Source: Blastococcus colisei (lineage in GTDB: Bacteria; Actinomycetota; Actinomycetes; Mycobacteriales; Geodermatophilaceae). From it: a stretch of 64,000 bases of DNA. A program made the position numbers and the translations under genes. Location of the stretch: NCBI RefSeq assembly GCF_006717095.1, contig NZ_VFQE01000001.1, forward strand, positions 1,116,001 to 1,180,000, in the 5' to 3' direction. The stretch's first letter is position 1, and each line of letters begins with the position of its first letter. This document shows, one piece after another, positions 27,756-44,300 of the stretch. The notes under the pieces were generated by a model. That model was given only the letters and a program-made list of their open reading frames with translations. It had not been told where the DNA came from and searched no databases.

Positions 27756-27771
27756 GCTACCGGCGGGTAAC
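27756..27771. promoter_or_regulatory. Palindromic operator upstream of meaA (GYTACC-N4-GGTARC)
   Basis: GCTACCGGCGGGTAAC. Near-identical 16-bp sites occur at 36597-36612 and 44274-44289 upstream of two other genes of the same pathway. It ends 5 bp before the meaA -10 box, a position suited to repression. Confidence 0.7.
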
Positions 27772-27776
27772 CGCCC

Positions 27777-27782
27777 TACACT
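27777..27782 (+). promoter_or_regulatory. -10 box of meaA
   Basis: TACACT, 8 nt before the ATG at 27791, directly downstream of the palindromic operator. Confidence 0.5.
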
Positions 27783-27790
27783 CCGCCGGT

Positions 27791-29821
27791 ATGCCGTTCC
27801 CTTCGTCGCCGGAGGAGCGTGACCGTCCGTGGGTCATGCGCACCTACGCCGGACACTCCTCGCCGGCCGAGTCCAACGCCCTGTACCGGCGCAACCTGGC
27901 GAAGGGGCAGACCGGTCTCTCGGTCGCCTTCGACCTGCCCACGCAGACCGGCTACGACCCCGACGACGAGCTCGCCGTCGGTGAGGTCGGCAAGGTCGGC
28001 GTCCCGGTCACCCACATCGGCGACATGCGCGCGCTCTTCGACGGCATCCCGCTCGACGAGATGAACACGTCGATGACGATCAACGCGACCGCGATGTGGC
28101 TGCTCGCGCTCTACCAGGCGGTCGCGGAGGAGCACGGCCACGACGTCAGCACGCTCGCGGGGACGACGCAGAACGACATCATCAAGGAGTACCTGTCGCG
28201 GGGGACCTACGTCTTCCCGCCGGCTCCGTCGATGCGGCTGATCACCGACATGGTCGCCTACACGGTGACGACCATGCCGAAGTGGAACCCCATCAACATC
28301 TGCAGCTACCACCTGCAGGAGGCCGGGGCCACGCCGGAGCAGGAGATCGCCTACGCCATCAGCACGGCCATCGCCGTCCTCGACTCCGTCCGTGACTCCG
28401 GGCAGGTGCCGCAGGAGAAGTTCGGCGAGGTCGTCGCGCGCATCTCCTTCTTCGTCAACGCGGGCGTCCGCTTCGTCGAGGAGATGTGCAAGATGCGTGC
28501 CTTCACCCAGCTCTGGGACGAGCTGACGAAGGAGCGCTACGGCGTCGAGGACCCCAAGCACCGCCGCTTCCGCTACGGGGTGCAGGTCAACTCCCTGGGG
28601 CTGACGGAGGCGCAGCCGGAGAACAACGTCCAGCGGATCGTGCTCGAGATGCTCGCGGTGACGCTGTCCCGCGACGCGCGAGCCCGTGCTGTGCAGCTGC
28701 CGGCCTGGAACGAGGCGCTCGGGCTGCCCCGGCCGTGGGATCAGCAGTGGTCGCTCCGGCTCCAGCAGGTGCTGGCCTACGAGACCGACCTGCTCGAGTA
28801 CGAGGACCTGTTCACCGGGTCGGTCGTCGTCGAGCGAAAGGTCGCCGGGCTCATCGAGGGCGCCAGGGCCGAGATGGCGCGTGTCGAGGAGATGGGCGGC
28901 GCCGTCGCGGCGGTCGAGTCCGGCTACATGAAGAGCGCGATGGTCGGTTCGCTGGCCGAGCGCCGCCGCCGGATCGAGAGCGGCGCGGACGTCGTCGTCG
29001 GCGTCAACAAGTTCGAGACCACCGAGCCCAATCCGCTCACCGCCGACCTCGACACGGCGATCATGGTCGTCGACCCGGCCGTGGAGGCCGCGGCGCAGGA
29101 GGCGGTGCGGACGTGGCGCGCCGAGCGCGACCAGGGAAGGTGCGACGAGGCGCTCGACGCCCTGCGAGAGGCGGCGGGCAGCGACGTCAACCTGATGGCC
29201 GCGACCCTCGACTGCGCCCGCGCCGGGGTGACGACGGGGGAGTGGGCCGGGGTGCTGCGCGAGGTGTTCGGTGAATACCGGGCGCCTACCGGCGTCGCCG
29301 CGGCGACCGGCGGCGGGGAGGCCGACGCCACCCTCACCGAGGTACGCGAGCGGGTCCGTGCCACCGGGGAGGAGATCGGTGGGCGGCTGCGCTTCCTGGT
29401 CGGCAAGCCCGGGCTCGACGGGCACTCCAACGGCGCCGAGCAGATCGCCGTGCGGGCCCGGGACGCCGGCTTCGAGGTGGTCTACCAGGGCATTCGCCTC
29501 ACCCCGGCGCAGATCGTCTCCGCGGCGGTCGAGGAGGACGTGCACGTGGTCGGTCTGTCGGTGCTGTCCGGATCCCACCTCCAGGTGGTCCCGAGCGTGC
29601 TCCAGGGCCTCAAGGACGCCGGACTCGACGACGTCCCGGTCGTCGTCGGCGGGATCATCCCCGACAGCGACGCCCGCCGGCTGCGCGAGCAGGGCGTGGC
29701 CCGGGTCTTCACGCCGAAGGACTTCGGGCTGACCGAGATCATGGGTCATGTCGTCGACGTGATCCGTGAGGCCCATGACCTCCCCGCCCACCCCGACCAG
29801 AAGGTGCCGACGCCGGTCTGA
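27791..29821 (+). CDS. meaA: Ethylmalonyl-CoA mutase (MeaA)
   Basis: Coenzyme-B12 mutase converting ethylmalonyl-CoA to methylsuccinyl-CoA. 676 residues: TIM-barrel domain (RTYAGHSSPAESN, GLSVAFDLPTQTGYD, TSMTINATAMW, ICSYHLQEAGAT) then a C-terminal B12-binding domain (about 540-665) with LDGHSNGAEQ (the DxHxxG cobalt ligand), SVLSGSHL and GGIIP. The substrate-site residues are Tyr in RTYAG and Arg in KEYLSRGTY, as in mutases acting on dicarboxylic acyl-CoAs; the sequence tracks Streptomyces MeaA closely, which separates it from methylmalonyl-CoA mutase. The ATG at 27791 lies 8 nt after TACACT; the preceding frame covers the operator. See ccr, the dehydrogenase and epimerase for pathway partners. 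Confidence 0.92.
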   Translation: MPFPSSPEERDRPWVMRTYAGHSSPAESNALYRRNLAKGQTGLSVAFDLPTQTGYDPDDELAVGEVGKVGVPVTHIGDMRALFDGIPLDEMNTSMTINATAMWLLALYQAVAEEHGHDVSTLAGTTQNDIIKEYLSRGTYVFPPAPSMRLITDMVAYTVTTMPKWNPINICSYHLQEAGATPEQEIAYAISTAIAVLDSVRDSGQVPQEKFGEVVARISFFVNAGVRFVEEMCKMRAFTQLWDELTKERYGVEDPKHRRFRYGVQVNSLGLTEAQPENNVQRIVLEMLAVTLSRDARARAVQLPAWNEALGLPRPWDQQWSLRLQQVLAYETDLLEYEDLFTGSVVVERKVAGLIEGARAEMARVEEMGGAVAAVESGYMKSAMVGSLAERRRRIESGADVVVGVNKFETTEPNPLTADLDTAIMVVDPAVEAAAQEAVRTWRAERDQGRCDEALDALREAAGSDVNLMAATLDCARAGVTTGEWAGVLREVFGEYRAPTGVAAATGGGEADATLTEVRERVRATGEEIGGRLRFLVGKPGLDGHSNGAEQIAVRARDAGFEVVYQGIRLTPAQIVSAAVEEDVHVVGLSVLSGSHLQVVPSVLQGLKDAGLDDVPVVVGGIIPDSDARRLREQGVARVFTPKDFGLTEIMGHVVDVIREAHDLPAHPDQKVPTPV

Positions 29822-29828
29822 CGTCGGC

Positions 29829-29834
29829 TAGCGT
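29829..29834 (+). promoter_or_regulatory. -10 box of the crotonase-family gene
   Basis: TAGCGT, 6 nt before the ATG at 29841, 7 nt after the meaA stop. Confidence 0.45.
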
Positions 29835-29840
29835 CGGGCC

Positions 29841-30611
29841 ATGACTGACGGCGCACCCCGGGTCGAGCGCAACGGCGACATCGTCTGCATCACGATGACG
29901 CGGGGAGCCCGGCGCAACGGGCTCTCGCGCGAGCACGTCGGGCAGCTGCTGGCCGCGTTCACCGACGCCGGTGCCGGCGACGCTGCTGGGATCGTGCTGG
30001 CGGCCGAGGGCCCGGTGTTCAGCGCGGGGCACGACTTCCGCGACGTCGTGGACCGTCCGCTGCCCGAGGTGCGCAGCCTGCTCGCGCTCTGCACGCAGCT
30101 CATGCAGACCATCGAGAGCGTTCCCCAGGTCGTCGTCGCGCGGGTGCAGGGGCACGCGGTCGCTGCGGGCTGCCAGCTGGTGGCCTCGTGCGACCTCGCG
30201 GTCGCCGCGGAGTCTGCCGGCTTCGCCGCTCCCGGTGGCAAGGGCGGCTGGTTCTGCCACACCCCGATGGTGCCGATCGCGCGGAACGTGGGCCGCAAGC
30301 GTGCCATGGAGCTCGCGTTGACCGGCGACATGATCGACGCCCGGACGGCGCTGGACTGGGGGCTGGTGAACCGGGTGGTGCCGGACGACGAACTGGACGG
30401 TGCCGTCACCGAGCTGATGCGTCGCGCGACGCGGGGATCCCGGACCAGCAAGGCGCTCGGCAAGCAGACGATGTACGCCCAGCTGGACCGACCGGAGCGC
30501 GACGCCTACGCGATCGCGGTCGAGGTGATGGCTGCCGCCAGCCAGCTGCCGTCGGCGTCGGAGTGGGGCGCGTCGTTCCTGGAGAAGCGCCGTCCGGTCT
30601 GGACCGACTAG
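29841..30611 (+). CDS. Enoyl-CoA hydratase/isomerase family protein
   Basis: 256 residues of the crotonase fold, acting on acyl-CoA thioesters. Oxyanion-hole stretches SAGHDFRDV and HAVAAGCQLVASCDLAVA are present. The usual catalytic glutamates are not clear: the second acidic position reads SCDLAV and GFAAPGGKGGWFCHTP follows, which resembles the ECHDC3-like subgroup of unknown substrate. It may supply crotonyl-CoA hydration or a side reaction for the neighbouring pathway, but that is inferred from position only. The next 198 bp (30612-30809) carry no convincing promoter. Confidence 0.8.
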   Translation: MTDGAPRVERNGDIVCITMTRGARRNGLSREHVGQLLAAFTDAGAGDAAGIVLAAEGPVFSAGHDFRDVVDRPLPEVRSLLALCTQLMQTIESVPQVVVARVQGHAVAAGCQLVASCDLAVAAESAGFAAPGGKGGWFCHTPMVPIARNVGRKRAMELALTGDMIDARTALDWGLVNRVVPDDELDGAVTELMRRATRGSRTSKALGKQTMYAQLDRPERDAYAIAVEVMAAASQLPSASEWGASFLEKRRPVWTD

Positions 30612-30809
30612 CGCGGGATTCCCCCGGGAGCGTGAATCGGCGCACATCCCGGCATGACCGGGCGACGGGTTGCATTGACCCTTCCGTGCAGAACCTGTGG
30701 GGCCTCACGCAGCGGCGTGCCCTGGACTACGGACGGATGACGACCGCCGGCTGTTGACGCCGGCCGCGCTCGTCGTCCCCTCCCCATCCTTCGAAAGGCC
30801 CTCCCTCTC

Positions 30810-32162
30810 GTGCTCGCTCGTCTCCGCCGCGTGCCGTTCGCGGCGCAGGTACTCCTCGCCCTCGTCGTGGGCGTCGCCCTCGGCCTCGTCGCCCGTGAGA
30901 TGGGCGCCGTCTCCGACGGCTCGCCCAACTGGCTGACCAGCACCCTCCAGACCATCGGCAGCACCTTCGTCACGCTGCTGAAGACTCTCGTCCCACCGCT
31001 GATCGTCACCGCGGTGATCGTCAGCATCGCCAACCTCAGGCAGGTCTCGAACGCCGCGCGCCTGGCCGGTCAGACCCTCCTGTGGTTCGCGATCACCGCC
31101 CTGATCGCGGTCGCGATCGGCATCGGCCTCGGCCTGCTCACCGAGCCGGGCCGCAACAGCTCGGTGGACGCCGCCGCGCAGACCGAGCCGGGCACCACCG
31201 GCTCCTGGTGGGGTTTCCTCAACGGGCTCGTGCCGCAGAACGTCTTCGGCCTGCAGGGCTCGGCCGAGGGCGCGCTGTCGTTCAACGTGCTCCAGTTGAT
31301 CGTTCTCTCGGCCGCGATCGGCATCGCCGCGCTCAAGGTCGGCGAGGCGGCCGAGCCGTTCCTCGGCTTCGTCCGTTCCGCACTGGCCATCGTCCAGAAG
31401 GTGCTCTGGTGGGTCATCCTGCTCGCGCCGCTGGGCACCGTCGGCCTGATCGGCAACGCGGTCGCCACGTACGGCTGGGAGTCCCTCGGCTCGCTCGGTG
31501 TCTTCGCCGGCGCCGTCTACGCGGGTCTCGCGCTGGTGCTGTTCGTCGTCTACCCGGTGCTCCTGCGCGCCCACGGCCTCTCGCCGCTGCGGTACTTCGC
31601 GGGCGCATGGCCGGCCATCCAGCTGGCCTTCGTCTCCCGCTCCTCGATCGGCACGCTGCCGGTGACCGAGCGGGTCACCGAGCAGAACCTCGGCGTCCCG
31701 CGGTCCTACGCCTCGTTCGCCGTCCCGCTGGGCGCGACGACGAAGATGGACGGCTGCGCGGCGATCTACCCGGCCCTGGCCGCCATCTTCGTGGCCCAGT
31801 TCTTCGGCGTGGACCTGGCGTTCACCGACTACCTGCTGATCGTGCTGGTCTCGGTCATCGGCTCCGCGGCCACCGCGGGGACGACGGGCGCGGTCGTCAT
31901 GCTCACGCTGACGCTGTCCACCCTGGGCCTCCCGCTGGCCGGCGTCGGCCTGCTGCTGGCCGTCGACCCGATCCTCGACATGGGCCGCACCGCGGTGAAC
32001 GTCGCCGGTCAGGCGCTCGTGCCGACCATCGTGGCCAAGCGCGAGGGCATCCTCGACGTCGAGCGCTACCGGTCGACCTCCACCGTCGACCCGCTGTCCC
32101 GGGTCGAGGAGCGCGCAGGTGTGGACGTCGACCTGCGTCGTCCGGAGCCCGTCACGGTCTGA
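30810..32162 (+). CDS. Dicarboxylate/amino acid:cation symporter (DAACS family)
   Basis: Inner-membrane Na+ or H+ coupled uptake of C4-dicarboxylates or glutamate/aspartate. 450 residues, eight membrane helices plus two re-entrant loops. Hallmarks: the serine-rich hairpin SRSSIGTLP, the cation-site GATTKMDG (family norm GATxNMDG), and DPILDMGRTAVNVAG, with Asp/Arg/Asn binding the substrate carboxylates. The GTG start follows GAAAGGCCCTCC. A supply of malate or succinate would link to the pathway genes nearby, but the substrate cannot be told from sequence. Confidence 0.9.
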   Translation: MLARLRRVPFAAQVLLALVVGVALGLVAREMGAVSDGSPNWLTSTLQTIGSTFVTLLKTLVPPLIVTAVIVSIANLRQVSNAARLAGQTLLWFAITALIAVAIGIGLGLLTEPGRNSSVDAAAQTEPGTTGSWWGFLNGLVPQNVFGLQGSAEGALSFNVLQLIVLSAAIGIAALKVGEAAEPFLGFVRSALAIVQKVLWWVILLAPLGTVGLIGNAVATYGWESLGSLGVFAGAVYAGLALVLFVVYPVLLRAHGLSPLRYFAGAWPAIQLAFVSRSSIGTLPVTERVTEQNLGVPRSYASFAVPLGATTKMDGCAAIYPALAAIFVAQFFGVDLAFTDYLLIVLVSVIGSAATAGTTGAVVMLTLTLSTLGLPLAGVGLLLAVDPILDMGRTAVNVAGQALVPTIVAKREGILDVERYRSTSTVDPLSRVEERAGVDVDLRRPEPVTV

Positions 32163-32182
32163 GCCGCAGGACCGCACGACCC

Positions 32183-32220
32183 GGCCGGTCCGGTCCTCCT
32201 CGCGGGGGACCGGGCCGGCC
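32183..32220. terminator. Bidirectional terminator hairpin
   Basis: GGCCGGTCCGGTCC (32183-32196) pairs with GGACCGGGCCGGCC (32207-32220), one T-G pair, 10-nt loop. It lies between the convergent symporter and lipoprotein genes. Confidence 0.7.
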
Positions 32221-32231
32221 GTCGTCGTGGA

Positions 32232-33113
32232 TCAATCGGTCAGGTCGGCGCAGCCGGACTCGCCGGGCAGGAGCGGACGGAAGGTCACCGACCAGCGCCT
32301 GCCGTCGTCGGTGACCCACGGGGTGGTCGCGTTGGCGTCCCGGGCTGCGGCGAGCAGTGTCTGCGCCCGGTCCCCGGTCGCGGTGACGCAGCTGACGTCG
32401 CCGAGGCCGCCGACCGGCTCGCCCGGCAGGTCGGGACCGGGCCAGGGCAGCTCCGGCTGCGGCAGGTCGTCGCCGGGGTCCACCCACGGGGAGACGACCG
32501 CCGCGACGGCCTCGGGCTCGTAGGCCTCCGTCGCGCGGCCCAGATCTGTCACCGAGGCGAGGAAGTCGCTGAGCTCCTCCCGGGCTGCCGCCTGCTCCGG
32601 CGTGATCCCGGTGTCGGGAGGGCCGGCGGGACCGGGAAGGTCGGAGGACGCCCCGAGCGCGTAGACCTCGCGGACGTAGGTGTCCGATGCGGTCACGAGG
32701 GTGAACCGGGTCGACGGGACATCGGCGATCGGCGGGCTGCCGAGGTCGCCGGTCTCGTCGACGCCGGCAGCCAGGGCCCGGTCCACGACGTCGGTCACCT
32801 GCCCGGGCTCGATCTCGGCCACCTGCAGATTGGGCAGCGCCGGGCCGGGATAGATCGCCGGCACGGGGCCCTCGGTGATCACCCGCCCGTCGGCGTAGAC
32901 GCTCACGATCGGCAGCCGCGCGGCGAGCATCATCGGCGTCACGAAGCCACCGGTGTGCTCCACCTGGAGCACCAGGCCCTCCTCCGGCGCCGCCACCGAC
33001 GACGGGGCCGCCGGGTCGCCGGGACTCGCCGTGCCGCCCCGCTCGGCGCACGCCGTCAGGGCCAGGACCAGGGCGAGTGCCGTGGCCGGCCGCGCCGCCC
33101 GCATGATCGTCAT
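32232..33113 (-). CDS. Putative lipoprotein
   Basis: About 293 residues. A signal peptide with lipobox LTAC ([15 protein letters not shown]) means the protein is lipid-anchored outside the membrane. The rest has no domain I can name; it includes [32 protein letters not shown], a pattern I recall from hypothetical lipoproteins in actinobacteria. Two cysteines near the end (SCVTATG, SGCADL) may pair. Two in-frame ATGs (33113, 33104) are possible; neither has an ideal ribosome site. It is divergent from nucS. Confidence 0.75.
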
Positions 33114-33171
33114 GCTCCTGTCGACGACGGGGCGGCGGGCAGGGTTCCCGCGCCCGGTACCGTCGGCGCCC

Positions 33172-33843
33172 GTGCGCCTGGTCATCGCCCGCTGCTCCGT
33201 CGATTACATCGGGCGGCTCACCGCCCACCTCCCCATGGCGACCCGCCTGTTGCTGGTGAAGGCCGACGGCTCGGTGTCCATCCACGCCGACGACCGCGCC
33301 TACAAGCCGCTGAACTGGATGACGCCGCCCTGCACGCTCAGGGACGAGCTGGCCGACGGGTCGGGCACCTGGACGGTCACGAACAAGGCCGGCGAGCAGC
33401 TGATCATCACGATCGAGGCGGTCGAGCACGACCACTCCCACGAACTGGGTGTCGACCCCGGCCTGCAGAAGGACGGCGTCGAGGCCGAGCTCCAGCGCCT
33501 GCTCGCCCTGCACGTGGAGACCTTCGGGGCCGGCTGGTCGCTGGTCCGCCGCGAGTACCCGACGGCGATCGGTCCGGTCGACCTGCTGTGCCGCGACGCG
33601 AGCGGGACCACCGTCGCCGTCGAGATCAAGCGGCGCGGCGAGATCGACGGCGTCGAGCAGCTCACCCGGTACCTGGAACTGCTCAACCGCGACCCGCTGC
33701 TGGCCCCGGTCAAGGGTGTGTTCGCCGCGCAGGAGATCAAGCCGCAGGCGCGGGTGCTCGCCACCGACCGCGGCATCGAGTGCGTGACCGTCGACTACGC
33801 CGTCCTCAAGGGCACCGACGACCCTTCCGCCCGGCTCTTCTGA
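33172..33843 (+). CDS. nucS: Mismatch endonuclease NucS
   Basis: Cuts both strands at G-T, G-G and T-T mismatches; replaces MutS/MutL in most actinobacteria. 223 residues. Start [20 protein letters not shown] and [13 protein letters not shown] match the N-terminal dimerisation domain; the nuclease core is the PD-(D/E)xK set [32 protein letters not shown] 33172 is 8 nt after TACCGT. Its last 49 nt overlap the end of the convergent M28 peptidase gene. The C-terminal residues SARLF resemble the tail reported to contact the sliding clamp. Confidence 0.94.
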
Positions 33844-34985: not shown

Positions 34986-34995
34986 GCCACTCCTC

Positions 34996-35316: not shown

Positions 35317-35324
35317 CGCTGGGC

Positions 35325-36335: not shown

Positions 36336-36681
36336 GCCTGTCGCCGTCCCTTCGTTCCCCACGGGGCGCCGTGCCCCCCGGGCGGCTTCGCGTCGACCGC
36401 CGACCTGCGGGCGGCAACGGTGGGACGGGCCGGGAACTCGCGCTCTGACCGGCGTGGGACCGGCTCCGGGCCGGGGATTGTCGGCCGCGAGGCGGCTCGT
36501 CCACGGCGGTCAGGATAGGGCCCGACGACCGGCTGTGGGGCCGTTCCCTGCGTCGTGTGCACGACGGCCGGACGCCGGTCCGCCGGGCGCGACGGGGTTA
36601 CCGGCGGGTAGCCACCGGGCGTGCGGTGCGGCGCGGGTGAGAGACTGCCCGCGATCACCGCCGGTGGGAGGAGAGGGCAAC
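36336..36681. other. 346-bp divergent intergenic region
   Basis: Lies between the divergent M43 protease and the hydroxyacyl-CoA dehydrogenase. It contains the operator at 36597-36612, a possible -10 GAGACT (36641-36646) and the ribosome site GGAGGAGAGGG (36667-36677). No open frame here looks coding. Confidence 0.6.
36597..36612. promoter_or_regulatory. Palindromic operator upstream of the hydroxyacyl-CoA dehydrogenase
   Basis: GTTACCGGCGGGTAGC, matching the meaA site (GCTACCGGCGGGTAAC) at 14 of 16 positions and, by inversion, closer still. It lies 70-85 nt before the GTG start. Confidence 0.7.
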
Positions 36682-38463
36682 GTGGCCAGGGAACTGAACG
36701 AGGTCGGCGTCGTGGGGCTGGGCACCATGGGTGCCGGCATCGCCGAGGTGCTCGCACGGGCGGGCCTGTCGGTCACGGCCGTGGAGGTCACCGACGAGGC
36801 ACTGGCGCGCGGCCGCGGGCACGTCGAGCAGTCCACCGACCGTGCCGTGAGCCGCGGCAAGCTCGACCCCGCCGACCGGGACACCATCTTCGAGCGGATC
36901 CGCTTCAGCACGTCGCTCGAGGACCTCGCGAACGCCGAACTCGTCATCGAGGCCATCCCCGAGCGGATGGAGCTCAAGGCCGACGTCTTCGCCAAGCTCG
37001 ACAAGATCTGCCCGCCGGACACCATCCTGGCGACCAACACGTCGAGCCTCTCGGTCACCGAGCTGTCGGTCGTGACCGGCCGGCCGAGCAAGGTCATCGG
37101 GATGCACTTCTTCAACCCCGCCCCGGTCATGAAGCTGGTCGAGGTGGTGCGCACCGTCGTCACGGAGCCGTCAGTGGTCGAGGACGTCGAGGCGCTGGCC
37201 GATCGGCTCGGCAAGGTCGACGTCACGATCGGCGACAAGGCCGGTTTCATCGCCAACGCGCTGCTCTTCGGCTACCTCAACCACGCCGTCTCGATGTACG
37301 AGAACCGCTACGCCAGCCGCGAGGACATCGACGCCGCCATGCGGCTGGGCTGCGGCCTGCCGATGGGCCCGCTCGCGCTGATGGACCTCATCGGCATCGA
37401 CACCGCCTACGAGATCCTCGACACGATGTACAAGCAGTCGCGCAACCGGCTGCACGCGCCCAGCCCCGTCATCAAGCAGATGATGACCGCGGGGCTGCTG
37501 GGCCGGAAGTCAGGCCGCGGCTTCTACTCCTACGCCGAGCCCGGCTCCGCCGAGGTCGTGGCCGACGCGGCCACCCCTGCCGCGGGCGGGGCCGCGGAGG
37601 GCGCCCGCGACGTCGCGACCGTCGGCGTCGTCGGATCCGGCACCATGGCCACCGGCATCATCGAGGTCGTGGCCAAGGGCGGCTACGACGTGCGCTTCGT
37701 CGCCCGGTCGCCCGAGAAGGTGGACGCGGTCACCACGGCGCTCACCAAGTCCCTCGACAAGCAGGTCGTGCGCGGCCGGCTCGAGGAGACCGTCAAGGAC
37801 CAGATCCTCGCCCGCGTCTCGGGGACGACGTCGCTCGACGACCTGGCCGACCGCGACCTGATCATCGAGGCCGTCGTCGAGTCGCTGGGGGTCAAGGAGG
37901 CGCTGTTCGCCAACCTCGGTGAGATCGCCAGGCCCGGCGCCGTGCTGGCCACCACCACGTCCAGCCTGCCGGTCATCGAGTGCGCCACAGCCAGCGGCCG
38001 CCCGGCCTCAGTCGTCGGCATGCACTTCTTCAACCCCGCACAGGTCATGAAGCTGGTGGAGGTCGTCAGCACGATCTCCACGGCGCCCGACGTGGCCGCC
38101 ACCGCACACGCGGTGAGCGCGAAGCTCGGCAAGCACGCGGTGTCCTGCACCGACCGCGCGGGATTCATCGTCAACGCCCTGCTCTTCCCGTACCTGAACG
38201 ACGCCGTGAAGATGCTCGAGGCGCACTACGCGACCGCCGACGACATCGACGCGGCCATGAAGGTCGGCTGTGGCTACCCGATGGGCCCCTTCGAGCTGCT
38301 GGACGTCGTCGGCCTCGACGTCTCCCTGGCCATCGAGAAGGAGCTCTACACCGAGTTCCGCGAGCCCGGCTTCGCCCCGGCGCCGCTCCTCGAGCACCTG
38401 GTCACCGCCGGTTACCTGGGTCGCAAGACCGGCCGCGGGTTCCGGGACTACGCCGGCCGCTGA
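36682..38463 (+). CDS. Duplicated 3-hydroxyacyl(butyryl)-CoA dehydrogenase
   Basis: 593 residues made of two tandem copies of the short-type dehydrogenase (each about 290 residues). Copy 1: GVVGLGTMGAGIAEVLA (NAD site), NTSSLSVTEL, MHFFNPAPVMKLVEVV, PMGPLALMDLIG. Copy 2: GVVGSGTMATGIIEVVA, TTSSLPVIECA, MHFFNPAQVMKLVEVV, PMGPFELLDVVG. Both keep the catalytic His-Glu stretch (HFFNP then E), so both sites may work. Known relatives in streptomycetes interconvert acetoacetyl-CoA and 3-hydroxybutyryl-CoA, the second step of the ethylmalonyl-CoA pathway. GTG 36682 follows a strong GGAGGAGAGG. The shared palindrome upstream ties it to meaA and ccr. Confidence 0.92.
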   Translation: MARELNEVGVVGLGTMGAGIAEVLARAGLSVTAVEVTDEALARGRGHVEQSTDRAVSRGKLDPADRDTIFERIRFSTSLEDLANAELVIEAIPERMELKADVFAKLDKICPPDTILATNTSSLSVTELSVVTGRPSKVIGMHFFNPAPVMKLVEVVRTVVTEPSVVEDVEALADRLGKVDVTIGDKAGFIANALLFGYLNHAVSMYENRYASREDIDAAMRLGCGLPMGPLALMDLIGIDTAYEILDTMYKQSRNRLHAPSPVIKQMMTAGLLGRKSGRGFYSYAEPGSAEVVADAATPAAGGAAEGARDVATVGVVGSGTMATGIIEVVAKGGYDVRFVARSPEKVDAVTTALTKSLDKQVVRGRLEETVKDQILARVSGTTSLDDLADRDLIIEAVVESLGVKEALFANLGEIARPGAVLATTTSSLPVIECATASGRPASVVGMHFFNPAQVMKLVEVVSTISTAPDVAATAHAVSAKLGKHAVSCTDRAGFIVNALLFPYLNDAVKMLEAHYATADDIDAAMKVGCGYPMGPFELLDVVGLDVSLAIEKELYTEFREPGFAPAPLLEHLVTAGYLGRKTGRGFRDYAGR

Positions 38464-38466
38464 GAC

Positions 38467-38772: not shown

Positions 38773-38778
38773 AAGAGG

Positions 38779-38835
38779 GCCACCCTTCCCCCCACGCCTC
38801 GCAGGCTCGGCGCGGGGACTGGCGAAGGGTGGCCG
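38779..38835. repeat. Dispersed palindromic repeat, copy C
   Basis: Perfect 11-bp arms GGCCACCCTTC (38779-38789) and GAAGGGTGGCC (38825-38835) around the core CCTCGCAGGCTCGGCGCGGG. It lies between two convergent genes. Confidence 0.8.
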
Positions 38836-38883
38836 ATCCAGTGCGCCACCAGACTCGCGACGGACCGTCACGACGCCGTTGCA

Positions 38884-39504
38884 TCACCTCATCAGCACCG
38901 CGCTGACGACGACGTTGTCGCGGTAGCTGCGCCTGTCTCGGTCGAACTCACCGCCGCAGGTGATCAGTCGCAGCTCGGCCCGGGGCGTGGGCCCGTAGAC
39001 GTCCTCGGTCGGGAACTCGTTCTTGGGATGACGTTCCGTGGCGGTGACGCTGAAACGGACCGTGCTCCCGTCGGCGCGGTCGACCAGCACCTCGTCGCCG
39101 ACGACCAGCTCGTCGAGCCGGAAGAACACCGCGGGCCCGTCCCGTGAGTCGACGTGACCGGCGATGACGGACGGTCCCACGTCGCCGGGCACGGCACCGT
39201 CGGCGAACCAGCCGGCCCGATCGAAGTCCTCCGGTGGCACCAGCGTGCCGGTGGCGTCGGTGCGCAAGCGCAGCAGTTCGCTGTCCACCCCCATGGCCGG
39301 CACCCGCACTCGAACCGGCGGCGCCGCGGTGCCCACGGTGCCGCGCTCGGCCACCACGGGGACCGGCGTGGCGGCGGCCTCGGTCGCCGGGACGGTCGCG
39401 CCCGGATGAACCAGCGCGACCGTGCCGGCGATCAGCGCGGTGCCGGCGAGCAGCCGCCAAAGCAGCGGCTGCACGGGCCGCCGCGGCCGACGGTGGGAGC
39501 TCAC
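38884..39504 (-). CDS. Class E/F sortase
   Basis: 206-residue membrane-anchored transpeptidase: basic N-terminus, membrane helix (about 12-33) and a sortase barrel with catalytic His in IAGHVDS, Cys in LITCGGEFD and Arg in SYRDNVVV. The sequence around them fits the actinobacterial class F group. It is 10 nt downstream of a DUF4397 gene on the same strand, whose protein has a C-terminal membrane helix and basic tail. That pairing suggests enzyme and substrate, although the tail has no LPxTG or LAxTG. Confidence 0.9.
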   Translation of the reverse strand: MSSHRRPRRPVQPLLWRLLAGTALIAGTVALVHPGATVPATEAAATPVPVVAERGTVGTAAPPVRVRVPAMGVDSELLRLRTDATGTLVPPEDFDRAGWFADGAVPGDVGPSVIAGHVDSRDGPAVFFRLDELVVGDEVLVDRADGSTVRFSVTATERHPKNEFPTEDVYGPTPRAELRLITCGGEFDRDRRSYRDNVVVSAVLMR

Positions 39505-39514
39505 CGGACGCGCC

Positions 39515-40372
39515 TCAGGAACGGGCGACGTGCCGGGCCCGACCGCGGCGCGACCGCCGGCCCACCAGCAGGCCGGCGAGGACCGTGAGGCCCAACGCGC
39601 CGCCCACGACGGCCGGGTCCAGCTCGCCGGCCGCAGTCCCGCCGGCTCCCGTCTCCACGCCGCCGGTGGGGACCGTGCCCGAGCCCGCGGCGTCCAGGAC
39701 CGTGCGCACGGTCAATCCGCCCTCGGGCCGGTCCAGGACGAAGAGGCTGTACACCGAGCCCGGGGCCAGGTCCAGCGGCAGGTCGGTGGCCTCGCCGTCC
39801 ACCGTGAGCTGGAGCGCACCGGCGTCGCCGGGCACGGCGGCGTAGTTCCCGGCCTCCGCGAAGGCCAGGTCGGTGGCCAGACCCGTGCCGCCGACGGAGG
39901 CGTCCAGGGTCGGTGCACCGGCAGCGGCGGAGATGACCCGCACTCGGGCCTGGCCGGACGGCGGCAGCGTGAGGTCGTCCTCGAGAACCTCCAGGCCGAG
40001 GTCGGCGAAGCGGCCGACCCCGGCGACGGTGCGGGCGTCCTCGGTACCGATCTCCACGGTGGTCGACAGCACGGGCGGGGCGGTCGGGTCGGCGCCGGCC
40101 TCCCGCATGCTCACCGTGTAGACCCCCGCGGGCACGCCCTGGTAGTCGGAGATGGTCCCGTAGCCGACGCCAGGCACCGTGAGCAGCGCCGTCCCGTCGC
40201 CCGGGTCGGCGACCGAGTCGACATAGACGTCGACCGCCGGGGTGTCCGGCGAGAGGTGGGCCAGGCGCAGCAGTCCGTCCTCCGCGGCGGTGGCCCCCGC
40301 CACCGCGGGGGCGACGAGCAGGAAGCCGGCACTCATCGCGACGACGGACAGCACACGGGTCGACCGGACCAC
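39515..40372 (-). CDS. DUF4397 secreted, C-terminally anchored protein
   Basis: 285 residues. Signal peptide at 1-29 (LSVVAMSAGFLLVAPAVAGA), then two DUF4397 beta-sandwich repeats: LRLAHLSPDTPAVDVYVD and ARVRVISAAAGAPTLDASV. The C-terminus is a hydrophobic helix (VGGALGLTVLAGLLVG) plus RRSRRGRARH, the layout of a cell-wall sorting signal without a clear sortase motif. Start: GTG at 40372 with GGAGGAA 4-5 nt before it, giving a complete signal peptide. DUF4397 function is unknown; it occurs on cell surfaces. Confidence 0.85.
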   Translation of the reverse strand: MVRSTRVLSVVAMSAGFLLVAPAVAGATAAEDGLLRLAHLSPDTPAVDVYVDSVADPGDGTALLTVPGVGYGTISDYQGVPAGVYTVSMREAGADPTAPPVLSTTVEIGTEDARTVAGVGRFADLGLEVLEDDLTLPPSGQARVRVISAAAGAPTLDASVGGTGLATDLAFAEAGNYAAVPGDAGALQLTVDGEATDLPLDLAPGSVYSLFVLDRPEGGLTVRTVLDAAGSGTVPTGGVETGAGGTAAGELDPAVVGGALGLTVLAGLLVGRRSRRGRARHVARS

Positions 40373-40457
40373 AGTTCCTCCAGCAGGTTCGGGAGCGGAC
40401 CGGAAGAGGCCCTGCGGTCCATTCGGCCACTCCACGCGACTCCTGTCCAACCGAGGG

Positions 40458-41378
40458 TCACGGGGAGGCCTCGGCGACCAGCGCGTCGGGCGCAGATGCG
40501 TAGCGGTAGGACAGCAGAACGCCGTCGTCGGTGACCTCCACGCGGTCGGGGGCGAAGGGCGGCAGCTGGGCCTCCAACCAGGTGCGCAGTTCCGCGGTGG
40601 CCGCCTCGCCGGCGCCGACCGGCGCGGTCCCCACGGCGTCGAGCAGCACGGTGCGCGCCGGCCCCTCGGCGCCCTCGGCCCGAGGGAACTCGGCCACGCC
40701 GAGGCCTTCCCGGGCGGTGAGCACCGCCAGCAGGGAGAGCAGCCGCATGTCCACGTCGGCCGACCCCAGCACTCCCGCGGCCTCCTCTGCGGCGCGCGTC
40801 GTGGGGTTGGCCAGCACCGCCTCGGCCAGCGTCCGCCGCCGGTCGAGGTGGTCTGCCGTCGGGATGCCGGGGGAGGGGTCGACCAGGACGAGGCCGTCGA
40901 AGCGGGCGACCACCCGGCCACCGGGCGCTGCGGAGCCGTCGGTCACCGTGAGGACGAGGTCGTCCGGGCCGGTGGGCCGGTCGGTCGCCACCAGGTCGTC
41001 GGGCGCTCCGGCGACGATCAGGTCGTCGCGCACGTCGCCCTCGGCTCGCAGCTGTGTGCCAGGAGGCAGCTCGCGGTCGGCCCAGTCCAGGAGGGCAGCC
41101 GCAGCGGGAGCCTGCGCGGCGGTGCCGGCCACCGGGGCGCTGTCAGGGGCGGTCCTCGTCCCCGCGGTCATGGTGGCCGCGCTCCCGGTCGGTCGGCTGC
41201 CCTGGGCGTCGGACCGGTCCCCCTGCTCCAGCCCCACCAGCAGGCCGGCCGCCGCCGCTGCCAGCATCACGGCGAGCGCCACCACGAAGACGAGCCGTCC
41301 GCGTCGGCTGCCGAGTGCTGCGCCGAGCGGACCCCCGGCGCGGTGCCGGGGACGGTGCCGTGCACGGCGGGTCGGCAC
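40458..41378 (-). CDS. Membrane-anchored protein of unknown function
   Basis: 306 residues. A basic N-terminus and one membrane helix (about 29-50, LVFVVALAVMLAAAAAGLLVG) are followed by an Ala/Thr/Ser-rich linker and an extracytoplasmic domain with LLDWADRELPPGTQLRAEG, DDLVLTV and LAVLTAREGLGVAEFPRAEG. I do not recognise the domain; it has no cysteines and no metal-site motif. A GTG start is assumed. It lies between the DivIVA-like gene and the DUF4397/sortase pair on the same strand, with an 85-nt gap to DUF4397, so it may belong to the same surface or envelope group. Confidence 0.7.
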   Translation of the reverse strand: MPTRRARHRPRHRAGGPLGAALGSRRGRLVFVVALAVMLAAAAAGLLVGLEQGDRSDAQGSRPTGSAATMTAGTRTAPDSAPVAGTAAQAPAAAALLDWADRELPPGTQLRAEGDVRDDLIVAGAPDDLVATDRPTGPDDLVLTVTDGSAAPGGRVVARFDGLVLVDPSPGIPTADHLDRRRTLAEAVLANPTTRAAEEAAGVLGSADVDMRLLSLLAVLTAREGLGVAEFPRAEGAEGPARTVLLDAVGTAPVGAGEAATAELRTWLEAQLPPFAPDRVEVTDDGVLLSYRYASAPDALVAEASP

Positions 41379-41482
41379 CGCACCTCCTCCCCGGCGTCCG
41401 TGGACGGCTGTGCCCCCAGGATGCCGCTGTCCCGCGAACAGTGGTGCGGTGGCTCGCTACCGCGGGTGGTACGCCACCGGCG

Positions 41483-42727
41483 TCAGAGCCGGCCGTGGGA
41501 GACCGGCTGGACGGCGGTGTCGGCGTTCTCCGCTCGAACCGCCGGCTGGTCGATGGCCTGGGTCGGCGGGCCCTGGACCGGAGCCTGTGTGGCGCCGGGC
41601 CGCGGGGGCATGGGGAGCTGGCGGGTCGTCGGCTCCGGACGGGTGGGCTGACGGGCCGCAGCCGCCTCGCCCTCGCCGCGGGAAGCGGTGGGGGATGCCA
41701 TGGCCGGGGCCGGCGCCGTGACCGGTGCTGTCGCACCGGTCTGCGGAGTGGGCGACGGACGGCGCTCGGTCTCCCCGGCGGGAGCAGCCTGCGACGTGCC
41801 GCTCGACGTGGTGGCCGGAGTCTGGCCGGCCGCGGGTGAGGACGGCTGCGCGTCCGCGGGTGCGTGCCGGGGGGGCGCCTGCTGGGGCTGTGCCTGCTGC
41901 TGCGGCTGAGGGGACGACTGCCGCGGACGGTCGCCGAGGTCCGGAAGGCTGCTGAGCAGCTGACGGGCCTGCAGGAGCCGGTTGGTGAGCTCGTCCCGGA
42001 CGTCGCGGATCGCTTCGGCCTTGGCCTCCGCCTCGGCGATGAGCTGCGCCGCATGCTGCTCGGCCGTGGCGATGCGCTGACGGGCGGCCTGGGTGGAGAC
42101 GCGCTCGCGCTCCTCCTCCGCCGCGGCGGCCTCGGCACGGCGCGCGCGCTGCGCGATGTCGAAGTCCTCCTCGACCTTCGCCCGGCGGGCCTGCGACTCG
42201 GCGTCGAGGCGGGCCACCCGCTCCTGGGCCTTGGCGACGAGTTCGTCGGCGCGCTGCTGCGCCTTCTGCGCGATCTGCTCGGCCTGCTGGTGGGCCTCGG
42301 TGAGCATCCGCTCGACCTCGGCCTGCCCGGCGGCGTGCCGCTCGAGCAGTGCGCGCTCCTCGGCGGCGGTCTGCTCGCGGACGGCCTGGGCGTCGAGCTC
42401 GGCGGCGCGGCGGATCTCGCCGGCCTCCTCCTCGGCGAGCTGCAGCATGTGCTGGATGCGCTCGCTGATGTTCTCGAACGTGGGGGCCGACGCCGTCGCG
42501 GCCTTGCGGCGCAGCGACTCGATCTCGCCGTGGAGGGCGGACAGCTGGCCCGCGAGGTCGGCCGAGCGGCTGACTGCGGCGTCGCGGTCGGCGAGGGCGA
42601 CCCGGAAGTCGGCCTCGAGACGCTCGATCGTGTCGGCCACCTGGCTGCGGTCGTACCCCCGCAGGACCACGTCGAACGAGTGCTGAGCCTCGTGGATCGG
42701 CAGCAGATCGCGGCGGGGATCGTTCAT
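41483..42727 (-). CDS. DivIVA-like coiled-coil protein
   Basis: 414 residues. N-terminal DivIVA-type stretch (FDVVLRGYDRSQVADTIERLEADF, about residues 17-40), a long coiled-coil rich in Glu/Ala/Arg (about 40-255), then a disordered Pro/Gln/Ala/Thr-rich tail of about 150 residues. This build is shared with actinobacterial polar growth or cytoskeletal proteins (DivIVA/Scy/FilP class), which scaffold cell-wall synthesis; the exact role is inferred. Start ATG 42727 has GGGAGAC at 0-4 nt; ATG 42736 is an alternative. Confidence 0.8.
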   Translation of the reverse strand: MNDPRRDLLPIHEAQHSFDVVLRGYDRSQVADTIERLEADFRVALADRDAAVSRSADLAGQLSALHGEIESLRRKAATASAPTFENISERIQHMLQLAEEEAGEIRRAAELDAQAVREQTAAEERALLERHAAGQAEVERMLTEAHQQAEQIAQKAQQRADELVAKAQERVARLDAESQARRAKVEEDFDIAQRARRAEAAAAEEERERVSTQAARQRIATAEQHAAQLIAEAEAKAEAIRDVRDELTNRLLQARQLLSSLPDLGDRPRQSSPQPQQQAQPQQAPPRHAPADAQPSSPAAGQTPATTSSGTSQAAPAGETERRPSPTPQTGATAPVTAPAPAMASPTASRGEGEAAAARQPTRPEPTTRQLPMPPRPGATQAPVQGPPTQAIDQPAVRAENADTAVQPVSHGRL

Positions 42728-42805
42728 GTCTCCCATCCTCGCAGACGCGCGGAGGCACTGTCAGCGTGTCGGGGGGAGTCGCCGGTACCAGCAGTCCCGG
42801 CTGTC

Positions 42806-42848
42806 CCCTGCGCCACGCCCCGGCTGCGGACCGGGGCGTGGCGCAGGG
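42806..42848 (-). terminator. Terminator of ccr
   Basis: A perfect 18-bp stem, CCCTGCGCCACGCCCCGG (42806-42823) with its complement at 42831-42848, 7-nt loop, beginning 22 nt after the ccr stop on the minus strand. It also shields the DivIVA-like gene that follows. Confidence 0.85.
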
Positions 42849-42869
42849 TGCCGTCAGGGGTGGGTGGGT

Positions 42870-44201
42870 TCAGACTCCACGGAAGCGGTTGATCGCCTCG
42901 AGGTGCTGCTCGCGCTTCTCGGCGTTCCGGACGCCGAGCCCTTCCTCGGGAGCCAGGGTCAGCACGCCGACCTTGCCCTGGTGGGCGTTGCGGTGGACGT
43001 CGAGGGCGGCCTGGCCGACCTCCTCCATCGGGTAGACCTTGGACAGGGTCGGGTGGATGAGGCCCTTGTCGATGAGCCGGTTGGCCTCCCACGCCTCCTT
43101 GTAGTTGGCGAAGTGGGAGCTGAGGATCTTCTTCAGGTTCATCCAGAGGTAGCGGTTGTCGTAGGAGTGCATGTAGCCGGTGGTCGAGGCGCAGGTGACG
43201 ATCGTCCCGCCCTTCTTGGCCACGTAGACGCTGGCGCCGAAGGTCTCCCGGCCGGGGTGCTCGAAGACGATGTCGACGTCCTCGCCGCCGGTGAGCTCCC
43301 GGATCTTCTTCCCGAGGCGCTGCCACTCCTTGGGATCCTGGGTGTTCTCGTCCTTCCAGAACGCGTACTGCTCGGCGGAGCGGTCGATGACCAGCTCGGC
43401 GCCCATCCGCCGGACGATCTCGGCCTTCTCCGGGCTGCTCACGACGCAGACCGGGATGGCGCCGCCGTTGAGGGCCATCTGGGTGGCGTAGGAGCCCAGG
43501 CCGCCGGAGGCGCCCCAGATCAGGACGGTGTCGCCCTGCTTCATGTTTGCGCCGTTGCGGCTGACCAGCTGGCGGTAGGCGGTGGAGTTGACCAGCCCGG
43601 GGGCGGCGGCCTCCTCCCAGGAGAGGTGGCCGGGCTTGGGCATCAGCTGGTTGCTCTTGACCAGGGCCAGCTCGGCCAGGCCGCCGAAGTTGGTCTCGAA
43701 GCCCCAGATCCGCTGCTGCGGGTCCATCATCGTGTCGTCGTGGCCGGCCGGGTCCTCCAGCTCGACCGACAGGCAGTGCGCGACGACCTCGTCACCGGGC
43801 TTCCACTTGTTCACCCCCGGGCCGACCTTGAGGACGACGCCGGCGAGGTCGGAGCCCACCACGTGGTAGGGCAGGTCGTGCTTCTTGGTCAGCTCGGAGA
43901 CGCGGCCGTACCGCTCCAGGAAGCCGAAGGTCGAGACCGGCTCGAAGATCGACGTCCAGACGGTGTTGTAGTTCACCGAGGACGCCATGACGGCGACGAT
44001 CGCCTCGCCCGGGCCGAGCTCCGGTGTGGGGACCTCCTCCACGTGCAGGGACTTGCGCGGGTCCTTCTCCTTGGTGGTGAGGCCCTCGAACATGTCCTGC
44101 TCGTCCTTGCGCACCAGCACCGCGCGGTAGGACTCGGGTACTGCCAGGCCACCCACGGCGTCCAGCTGGTCGCTGAGGATGGCGTCCCTGATCTCGTTCA
44201 C
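42870..44201 (-). CDS. ccr: Crotonyl-CoA carboxylase/reductase
   Basis: NADPH-dependent reductive carboxylation of crotonyl-CoA to ethylmalonyl-CoA, the signature reaction of the ethylmalonyl-CoA pathway and a source of polyketide extender units. 443 residues of the medium-chain reductase superfamily. Seen: SSVNYNTVWTSIFEPVSTF, YHVVGSDLAGVV, EDPAGHDDTMMDPQQRIWGFETNFGG (a Ccr-specific insert), NADPH site IWGASGGLGSYA, and FEHPGRETFG with His and Glu in the CO2 pocket. GTG 44201 was chosen because CAGGAG lies 5-6 nt before it; the ATG at 44228 lacks a ribosome site. Its promoter carries the shared palindrome (44274-44289). Confidence 0.95.
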   Translation of the reverse strand: MNEIRDAILSDQLDAVGGLAVPESYRAVLVRKDEQDMFEGLTTKEKDPRKSLHVEEVPTPELGPGEAIVAVMASSVNYNTVWTSIFEPVSTFGFLERYGRVSELTKKHDLPYHVVGSDLAGVVLKVGPGVNKWKPGDEVVAHCLSVELEDPAGHDDTMMDPQQRIWGFETNFGGLAELALVKSNQLMPKPGHLSWEEAAAPGLVNSTAYRQLVSRNGANMKQGDTVLIWGASGGLGSYATQMALNGGAIPVCVVSSPEKAEIVRRMGAELVIDRSAEQYAFWKDENTQDPKEWQRLGKKIRELTGGEDVDIVFEHPGRETFGASVYVAKKGGTIVTCASTTGYMHSYDNRYLWMNLKKILSSHFANYKEAWEANRLIDKGLIHPTLSKVYPMEEVGQAALDVHRNAHQGKVGVLTLAPEEGLGVRNAEKREQHLEAINRFRGV

Positions 44202-44271
44202 GCGAACTCCTGGGTCATCTGTGGCCATCGTCGGCCGGCTCGGAGGCGGTACGGGCGGTACGGGTGGCGCG

Positions 44272-44300
44272 ATGTTACCGATGGGTAACCGGATGGTCGA
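44272..44300 (-). promoter_or_regulatory. ccr promoter overlapping the operator
   Basis: On the minus strand TCGACC (44300-44295), a 17-bp spacer and TAACAT (44277-44272). The 16-bp palindrome lies over the spacer end and the -10 box, so a bound protein would block RNA polymerase. Confidence 0.55.
44274..44289. promoter_or_regulatory. Palindromic operator upstream of ccr
   Basis: GTTACCGATGGGTAAC, a perfect GTTACC/GGTAAC inverted repeat with a 4-nt centre. Same motif as 27756-27771 and 36597-36612. Confidence 0.75.

What the first reader, a model, noticed from the sequence alone, without database searches (positions are those of the whole stretch)
27756..44289. One 16-bp palindrome in front of three separated genes of the ethylmalonyl-CoA route
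Seen: GCTACCGGCGGGTAAC before meaA (27756), GTTACCGGCGGGTAGC before the duplicated hydroxyacyl-CoA dehydrogenase (36597) and GTTACCGATGGGTAAC before ccr (44274). Consensus GYTACC-N4-GGTARC. At meaA it lies 5 bp from a -10 box; at ccr it overlaps a TCGACC-17-TAACAT promoter. I saw no other intergenic copy in 64 kb. Known: the three products act in one pathway. Inference: a TetR-like dimer encoded elsewhere coordinates them, an apparently undescribed regulon.
Basis: partly seen in the sequence, partly recalled or inferred. Interest (0 to 1): 0.8.

Follow-up and report, generated by a model that had tools for sequence, protein, structure and literature searches.

The report
Shared switch for fat-breakdown genes
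A short mirror-image DNA word in front of three genes is most likely a control site shared by fat-breakdown and carbon-salvage genes across many actinobacteria, and the best candidate protein to read it is a relative of a known lipid sensor.

Summary
In detail: three exact intergenic palindromes, the only exact copies in the window and well above chance. The EMC-only reading is too narrow. Genome-wide, GYTACY-N4-RGTARC has nine exact places; eight precede beta-oxidation, electron-transfer or EMC genes. With at most one mismatch the site recurs before ccr (47 of 50 non-Streptomyces, 0 of 29 Streptomyces), meaA (25 of 27; 0 of 3 Streptomyces), fadA (23 of 23) and a FadE5-like acyl-CoA dehydrogenase (27 of 27). 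Best candidate reader: a FasR orthologue 153 kb from the meaA site, with a recognition-helix segment identical to M. tuberculosis FasR; its own promoter carries the word in 37 of 50 relatives, 6 of 6 Streptomyces included, and the published FasR co-crystal DNA holds two one-mismatch cores. Likely mechanism, inferred: a dimer covers the -10 box and is released by long-chain acyl-CoA. Against: nothing bound or expressed was measured, the copy at fasR in this genome is degenerate, and the mycobacterial repressor FdmR is an untested rival. Streptomyces ccr has a different palindrome and a neighbouring TetR gene.

The parts
27756..27771 (+). Operator GCTACCGGCGGGTAAC before meaA
   Evidence: Exact match; site within 1 mismatch in 25 of 27 non-Streptomyces meaA relatives, 0 of 3 Streptomyces
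27777..27782 (+). Probable -10 box TACACT of meaA, 5 bp after the operator
   Evidence: Sequence; TANNNT at this offset (20) in 8 of 25 relatives, at offset 11 in 11 of 25
27791..29821 (+). meaA-like gene, methylmalonyl-CoA mutase family, 676 aa (ethylmalonyl-CoA mutase by inference)
   Evidence: PF01642 E 2e-134, PF02310; under the NCBIfam methylmalonyl-CoA mutase cut-off, 558.8 of 876 bits
36597..36612 (+). Operator GTTACCGGCGGGTAGC before the duplicated hydroxyacyl-CoA dehydrogenase
   Evidence: Exact match; exact site in 7 of 14 anchored Geodermatophilaceae loci
36682..38463 (+). Two-unit 3-hydroxyacyl-CoA dehydrogenase, 593 aa
   Evidence: PF02737 and PF00725 twice each; NF005875 3-hydroxybutyryl-CoA dehydrogenase 672 bits, cut-off 319
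44274..44289 (-). Operator GTTACCCATCGGTAAC (minus strand) before ccr
   Evidence: Exact match; within 1 mismatch in 47 of 50 non-Streptomyces ccr loci, 34 exact, and in 0 of 29 Streptomyces loci
44272..44277 (-). Probable -10 box TAACAT of ccr, overlapping the operator
   Evidence: Sequence; TANNNT at this register in 42 of 47 relatives
44295..44300 (-). Possible -35 box TCGACC of ccr, 17 bp from the -10 box
   Evidence: Sequence
42870..44201 (-). ccr, crotonyl-CoA carboxylase/reductase, 443 aa
   Evidence: TIGR01751 604.7 bits, cut-off 378.55
44307..44765 (-). Methylmalonyl-CoA epimerase gene upstream of ccr on the same strand; no operator of its own in this window
   Evidence: TIGR03081 143.4 bits, cut-off 114.95; no copy within 1 mismatch between 44765 and 44975

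Best explanation
The palindrome (GYTACY-N4-RGTARC) is the operator of a conserved actinobacterial fatty-acid degradation regulon that includes the ethylmalonyl-CoA route. Its most likely reader is the TetR-family FasR orthologue at G000:C1:990329-990955 (minus strand), 153 kb from the meaA site. A dimer would bind the two TAC half-sites; at ccr and fadA the downstream half-site runs into the promoter -10 box, so binding should exclude RNA polymerase. When fatty acids are taken up, long-chain acyl-CoA would fill the ligand tunnel and release the protein, so that beta-oxidation (acyl-CoA dehydrogenase, fadAB), its electron acceptors (etfBA and an iron-sulphur oxidoreductase) and assimilation of the resulting acetyl-CoA (ccr, meaA, a malyl-CoA-lyase-like gene) rise together. 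Shown here: the sites, their positions, conservation, the neighbouring genes and the orthology of the regulator. Inferred: that this protein binds them, that it represses, and that long-chain acyl-CoA is the signal.
For: Own genome: eight of nine exact places precede beta-oxidation, electron-transfer or EMC genes. Relatives, YTACY-N4-RGTAR with at most 1 mismatch: ccr 47 of 50 non-Streptomyces, meaA 25 of 27, fadA 23 of 23 (all exact, 3 Streptomyces included), FadE5-like acyl-CoA dehydrogenase 27 of 27 (26 exact, 3 Streptomyces included), malyl-CoA-lyase-like gene 14 of 21. Background in Streptomyces ccr loci: 0 of 481 genes exact, 28 with 1 mismatch. The true half-site scored above the other 59 orderings of its letters for ccr (40 against at most 22), meaA (20 against 14) and fasR (15 of 25 against 9). 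Six other genomes: 25 forward matches against 3 for the reversed pattern; 18 of the 23 loci read, out of 36 places, precede such genes, judged by eye from the start of the protein. Reader: best PDB match is FasR 6o6p, E 6.5e-61, with IADRAGVSKPVLYQHF identical; one match in each of 50 of 50 genomes; own promoter with the word in 37 of 50 relatives, 13 exact, 6 of 6 Streptomyces with 1 mismatch. Control: of 47 TetR genes in the ccr loci only one has a copy within 1 mismatch, and that one shares meaA's site. The FasR co-crystal 25-mer holds two one-mismatch TACY-N4-RGTA cores, which random 25-mers do at about 1.3e-4 to 1.5e-4. M. tuberculosis FasR leaves DNA on acyl-CoA of C16 or longer (PMC7382501, passages).
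Against: No binding or expression was measured. In this genome alone fasR does not stand out among the 42 TetR genes: its promoter copy has 3 mismatches to the 16-letter word, and another TetR gene has 2. In 13 of 50 relatives the fasR promoter has no copy within 1 mismatch. The protein scores 259.2 bits against the NCBIfam FasR cut-off of 330. M. tuberculosis FasR activates fatty-acid synthesis, the opposite sign. Only the 12-letter core can be scored on the co-crystal oligo because the cores end at its ends; the best full 14-letter match inside it has 4 mismatches. FasR is present in all 50 genomes searched, Streptomyces included, so its presence cannot be correlated with the ccr site. One exact genome site precedes a glycosyltransferase with no evident role. 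Two of 27 meaA relatives, a Blastococcus and a Frankiales MAG, lack the site, and half of the anchored Geodermatophilaceae dehydrogenase loci do. TANNNT overlaps the operator in only 16 of 23 fadA and 11 of 25 meaA relatives.
Confidence: 0.7

Rival explanations
1. The reader is not FasR but another TetR protein with a similar helix, such as an orthologue of mycobacterial FdmR (Rv0238), a long-chain-acyl-CoA-responsive repressor of fatty-acid degradation. FasR itself would then be just one target of that protein.
For: FdmR is described with exactly this role (passage in PMC12403877). Two further TetR proteins of this genome match the FasR model weakly: L162 at 112.6 bits and L134 at 95.9 bits.
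Against: The published FasR DNA holds two cores of this word; no own-genome TetR gene other than fasR was shown to carry a conserved site. But this comparison across relatives was made for fasR only, and no FdmR sequence or operator was at hand.
Confidence: 0.2
2. The operator is read by FasR, but as an activator, as in M. tuberculosis, so the genes fall rather than rise when long-chain acyl-CoA accumulates.
For: The best-studied orthologue is an activator (passages in PMC7382501). At meaA the copy lies upstream of the TACACT box.
Against: At ccr the TANNNT box runs into the operator in 42 of 47 relatives and at fadA in 16 of 23, an unusual place for an activator site; catabolic genes switched off by their own substrate make little sense (inference).
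Confidence: 0.12
3. An EMC-only regulon with a dedicated regulator, comparable to CcrR of Methylobacterium.
For: Three of six strict exact genome copies are at EMC-route genes in this window.
Against: The same word precedes fadA in 23 of 23 and the acyl-CoA dehydrogenase in 27 of 27 relatives, also in Streptomyces where ccr lacks it.
Confidence: 0.02
4. Chance palindromes or a promoter-structure motif without a dedicated regulator.
For: With one mismatch allowed the word is no commoner in the genome than its reversed control.
Against: Exact copies 6 against 0; conservation at fixed positions before the same genes across orders, and 0 of 481 exact in background genes.
Confidence: 0.01

Closest known systems
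FasR (Rv3208) of Mycobacterium tuberculosis, TetR-type acyl-CoA sensor
   Same: Closest solved relative of the candidate reader (6o6p, E 6.5e-61), identical recognition-helix segment, similar operator cores, acyl-CoA of C16 or longer as effector there
   Different: There it activates fas-acpS, that is fatty-acid synthesis; here the sites mark degradation and the EMC route, placed as for a repressor. NCBIfam cut-off not reached
FdmR (Rv0238), mycobacterial repressor of fatty-acid degradation
   Same: Same pathway and type of signal (passage in PMC12403877)
   Different: Its operator and sequence could not be compared; the primary paper is not held. No EMC genes are mentioned in the passages seen
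CcrR of Methylobacterium extorquens AM1
   Same: A TetR protein that acts on an EMC-pathway gene (seen as a title in the reference list of PMC4606968)
   Different: An activator in an alphaproteobacterium by its title; here a wide fatty-acid regulon in Actinobacteria
FadR of Escherichia coli (recalled)
   Same: One acyl-CoA-released protein represses fatty-acid degradation
   Different: GntR family, unrelated protein; recalled, not compared here
RamB of Paracoccus denitrificans
   Same: Coordinates acetyl-CoA assimilation through the EMC pathway (abstract in the listing, PMC10370305)
   Different: Other regulator, other phylum; the listing speaks of the glyoxylate cycle, not of beta-oxidation

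Membership tests
FasR, NCBIfam NF053731 | Score over the curated equivalog cut-off of 330 bits | tested here: not met
   259.2 bits, E 2.4e-77, profile 1-196 of 199. It is therefore called a FasR orthologue and not filed as an NF053731 equivalog
FasR, NCBIfam NF053731 | Recognition-helix segment of the solved FasR | tested here: met
   IADRAGVSKPVLYQHF identical in the alignment to 6o6p
FasR, NCBIfam NF053731 | Operator like the known FasR DNA | tested here: inconclusive
   Two one-mismatch TACY-N4-RGTA cores in the co-crystal 25-mer, random rate about 1.5e-4; the flanks cannot be scored
FasR, NCBIfam NF053731 | Activates fas-acpS and leaves DNA on acyl-CoA of C16 or longer | not testable with these tools
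   Needs experiments; fas genes of this genome were not looked for
TetR-type fatty-acid degradation regulon (as a kind) | One palindrome shared by fad genes and by the promoter of a TetR gene | tested here: met
   fadA 23 of 23, acyl-CoA dehydrogenase 27 of 27, fasR 37 of 50 with at most 1 mismatch
FdmR regulon | Orthologue of Rv0238 and its operator | not tested
   No FdmR sequence or operator at hand. No model of that name appeared for the 40 of 42 TetR proteins scanned against NCBIfam, at E 1e-10 for 10 of them and 1e-20 for 30
EMC-specific regulon (CcrR-like) | Sites confined to EMC genes | tested here: not met
   Sites also before acyl-CoA dehydrogenase, fadAB and etfBA

The most novel reading that the evidence does not exclude
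FasR-type proteins are the actinobacterial counterpart of E. coli FadR: an old TetR-type acyl-CoA sensor whose original job is to hold down beta-oxidation, with the ethylmalonyl-CoA route as its outlet for acetyl-CoA. Mycobacteria would have turned the same protein and operator to activating fatty-acid synthesis, which gives the same logic with the opposite sign, and Streptomyces would have taken its EMC operon out of the regulon by means of a new palindrome and a neighbouring TetR gene.
Probability: 0.4. Interest if true: 0.75.

Novelty: new variant of a known kind. Interest (0 to 1): 0.6.

Why it matters
If true, it names a candidate master switch for fat use in a large group of soil and industrial actinobacteria and ties it to the pathway that turns the resulting acetyl-CoA into cell carbon and into ethylmalonyl- and methylmalonyl-CoA, which are polyketide building blocks (established biochemistry, recalled). 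A 2017 study of Streptomyces beta-oxidation states that regulatory signals for fatty-acid catabolism in these bacteria had not been described (PMC5539140, passage). It would also show one acyl-CoA sensor used for opposite halves of lipid metabolism in related bacteria, and a lineage (Streptomyces) in which one branch of the regulon was handed to another control site.

Tried and rejected
Autoregulation as a shortcut to the regulator in the own genome failed: none of 42 TetR genes has a copy within 1 mismatch of the 16-letter word in 200 bp upstream; the best (C1:2681265) has 2 and fasR 3. Only the comparison with relatives brought fasR out.

A TetR gene with an exact site in Aeromicrobium (L056:17513-18169) was considered and dropped: it shares the site with the divergent meaA, and its best match among the 42 own TetR proteins is only 36% identical over 85 residues.

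The TetR gene near the FadE5-like dehydrogenase (L121:6372-6998) was considered because of its position; no NCBIfam model matched at 1e-10 and it has no site of its own.

One-mismatch genome hits were not counted as sites, because they do not exceed the reversed control, although several precede acyl-CoA dehydrogenases (L022, L024), a FadD-like ligase (L125) or a lipid transporter (L122). Looser searches of exact 4-base palindromes in fasR promoters gave nothing above shuffles, a result against a strong, uniform fasR site.

Phylogenetic profiling of FasR was useless: it is in all 50 genomes searched. The background around non-Streptomyces ccr (73 of 759 genes exact) is not a clean control, since most of these are ccr, the dehydrogenase, thiolase, epimerase or neighbours that share their sites; the Streptomyces background was used instead.

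Papers: FdmR's and FasR's first descriptions are not held. One paper search with sequence terms returned only unrelated hits.


Full report
The window. The genome lies in or near the Geodermatophilaceae: its ccr protein is 94% identical to those of Blastococcus. Genes in the window were called by a small script, not taken from an annotation.

The sites. GCTACCGGCGGGTAAC at 27756, GTTACCGGCGGGTAGC at 36597 and GTTACCGATGGGTAAC at 44274 are real. They are the only exact TACC-N4-GGTA in 64 kb, where shuffles give 0.05 on average. The genes behind them are a mutase of the methylmalonyl-CoA mutase family, read as meaA; a two-unit 3-hydroxyacyl-CoA dehydrogenase; and crotonyl-CoA carboxylase/reductase. 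The name meaA, that is ethylmalonyl-CoA mutase, is an inference; the NCBIfam model for methylmalonyl-CoA mutase stays under its cut-off.

Beyond the window. GYTACC-N4-GGTARC occurs six times in 5.16 Mb, the reversed control not at all; TACC-N4-GGTA 23 times against 11. The relatives (below) showed that the inner base is a pyrimidine, so GYTACY-N4-RGTARC was searched: nine exact places. They lie before a 614-residue acyl-CoA dehydrogenase (C1:413506), an iron-sulphur oxidoreductase that I take to be EtfD-like (C1:435299), meaA, the dehydrogenase, ccr, etfBA (C1:1188903), fadAB (C1:1799976), an HpcH/HpaI aldolase that I take to be malyl-CoA-lyase-like (C2:48762), and a glycosyltransferase (C1:1726334). 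The labels EtfD-like, FadE5-like and malyl-CoA-lyase-like are mine, from protein starts, domains and recollection; the aldolase lies directly beside meaA in the three Streptomyces genomes, which fits an EMC role. Allowing one mismatch gave 41 places against 56 for the control, so these were not used as sites.

Conservation. Upstream stretches of 250-270 bases were scored with YTACY-N4-RGTAR. At most one mismatch: ccr, 47 of 50 non-Streptomyces loci (34 exact) and 0 of 29 loci grouped as Streptomyces (one of these is named only as Actinobacteria bacterium OV320); one truncated locus of the 80 was dropped. meaA: 25 of 27 non-Streptomyces, 0 of 3 Streptomyces. fadA: 23 of 23, all exact, Streptomyces included; 7 of the 30 genomes searched gave no fadA match at the threshold. 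FadE5-like dehydrogenase: 27 of 27, 26 exact, Streptomyces included; 3 of 30 genomes gave no match. Malyl-CoA-lyase-like gene: 14 of 21 anchored loci (22 loci from 21 of 30 genomes); the three Streptomyces loci have 3 mismatches. Duplicated dehydrogenase: exact in 7 of 14 anchored Geodermatophilaceae loci. Lineages with sites include Pseudonocardiaceae, Nocardioidaceae, Frankia and a Mycobacteriaceae MAG. Controls: in Streptomyces ccr loci 0 of 481 genes have an exact copy and 28 have one with 1 mismatch; among all 60 orderings of the half-site letters TTACY the true one scored highest for ccr, meaA and fasR.

Independent genomes. GTTACY-N4-RGTARC in six other genomes gave 25 forward matches against 3 for the reversed control, 36 distinct places. 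Loci were returned for 23 of them. In 18 of 23 the gene downstream is, by eye from its first residues, a beta-oxidation, electron-transfer or EMC gene; of the other five, one lies inside a gene, one has no called gene, and three precede a TetR or lipase-like gene, a methyltransferase-like gene and a small thioesterase-like gene.

The genome has 42 TetR genes. None has a copy within one mismatch of the 16-letter word in its own promoter. The candidate came from a published structure: the DNA crystallised with M. tuberculosis FasR (PMC7382501, passages) contains two copies of TACY-N4-RGTA with one mismatch each, which random 25-mers do at about 1.3e-4 to 1.5e-4. The oligo ends at the ends of these cores, so the outer letters cannot be judged. 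The orthologue here (L135:330-956, C1:990329-990955) matches FasR 6o6p with E 6.5e-61 and is identical over IADRAGVSKPVLYQHF; it scores 259 bits on the NCBIfam FasR model, under its cut-off of 330. Each of 50 genomes searched has one match (in the larger genomes only the first 62 candidates were scored). In 37 of 50 relatives the promoter of this gene has the word with at most one mismatch, 13 exact, and in all 6 Streptomyces with one mismatch. As a control, among 47 TetR genes lying in the ccr loci only one has such a copy, and it shares it with meaA. In the window's own genome the fasR copy is degenerate, AGAACCCGCCGGTAAC, at the same distance as in the relatives.

Mechanism. In ccr relatives the second half-site continues into a TANNNT hexamer in 42 of 47, in fadA in 16 of 23, in meaA in 11 of 25 with a further 8 of 25 having the hexamer nine bases on, as in this window; in the acyl-CoA dehydrogenase the hexamer starts three bases later in 17 of 27. 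This is where a repressor would exclude RNA polymerase. The first two letters of the hexamer are the operator's own, so the evidence is the final T alone (71% of 159 pooled sites). Before the acyl-CoA dehydrogenase this genome has two boxes 22 bases apart, and the eight relatives displayed show a second box or near-box at the same place. FasR of M. tuberculosis leaves DNA when acyl-CoA of C16 or longer binds. Carried over, fatty acids would switch on their own breakdown and the route that assimilates the acetyl-CoA. That last step is inference.

Streptomyces. All 29 loci grouped as Streptomyces lack the site at ccr while fadA, the acyl-CoA dehydrogenase and fasR keep it (3 of 3, 3 of 3, 6 of 6). 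All 29 have a same-strand TetR gene with the segment RRTFFRHF 373 to 2104 bases before ccr, and 23 of 29 have an exact GCCTG-N5-CAGGC before ccr, found in 0 of 50 non-Streptomyces loci even with one mismatch. Only 1 of 29 has it at the TetR gene's own promoter, so the link between the two is unproven.

Literature. Ten searches of the open-access library gave no paper describing this set of targets; the library lacks most subscription papers, and the first descriptions of FdmR and FasR are not held. What is known of FdmR here comes from passages in other papers.

Verdict. The palindrome as a conserved operator of a fatty-acid degradation regulon that includes the EMC route is well supported. 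FasR as reader is likely, not shown; repression and the acyl-CoA signal are inferred. After checking the counts, the odds for the best explanation were set at 0.70, slightly lower than my first estimate of 0.72, because in the own genome fasR does not stand out by itself.

Noticed in passing
L065-L120, the 29 loci grouped as Streptomyces, 373-2104 bp upstream of ccr: A same-strand TetR gene (RRTFFRHF segment) in 29 of 29 loci and a conserved palindrome GCCTG-N5-CAGGC before ccr in 23 of 29, absent from 50 of 50 non-Streptomyces loci.
   Followed up: partly
L121:4965-5022 (C1:413506 region) and relatives L271-L278: Two tandem boxes 22 bases apart before the 614-residue acyl-CoA dehydrogenase; a second box or near-box at the same place in the eight relatives displayed.
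   Followed up: partly
L016:6035-6050 (C1:1726334): An exact site 35 bp before a GT4-type glycosyltransferase followed by a methyltransferase, with no evident link to fatty-acid breakdown.
   Followed up: partly
L122:4055-4070 (C1:715154): GTTACTGGTGAGTAGG before an ABC ATPase and MlaE permease pair next to ribosomal-protein genes, possibly lipid import.
   Followed up: no
L058, L063, L064, L067, L072, L078, L102: In seven loci, mostly Pseudonocardiaceae, an exact copy lies between the divergent thiolase and epimerase genes, where the window has none.
   Followed up: no
L154:427-975 (C1:260843): A TetR protein just under the cut-off of the mycofactocin regulator MftR (220 of 224.9 bits), another long-chain-acyl-CoA-linked regulator (PMC8728441 title and abstract in listings).
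   Followed up: no
L162:315-1001 (C2:866425) and L134:472-1086 (C2:295498): Two further TetR proteins with weak matches to the FasR model, 112.6 and 95.9 bits; possible paralogues that could compete for the same operator.
   Followed up: no
L040:1138-1740 (C1:3612709): A TetR gene over the cut-off of the SACE_7040 family (261.8 of 250 bits) beside acyl-CoA carboxylase and acyl-CoA dehydrogenase genes.
   Followed up: no
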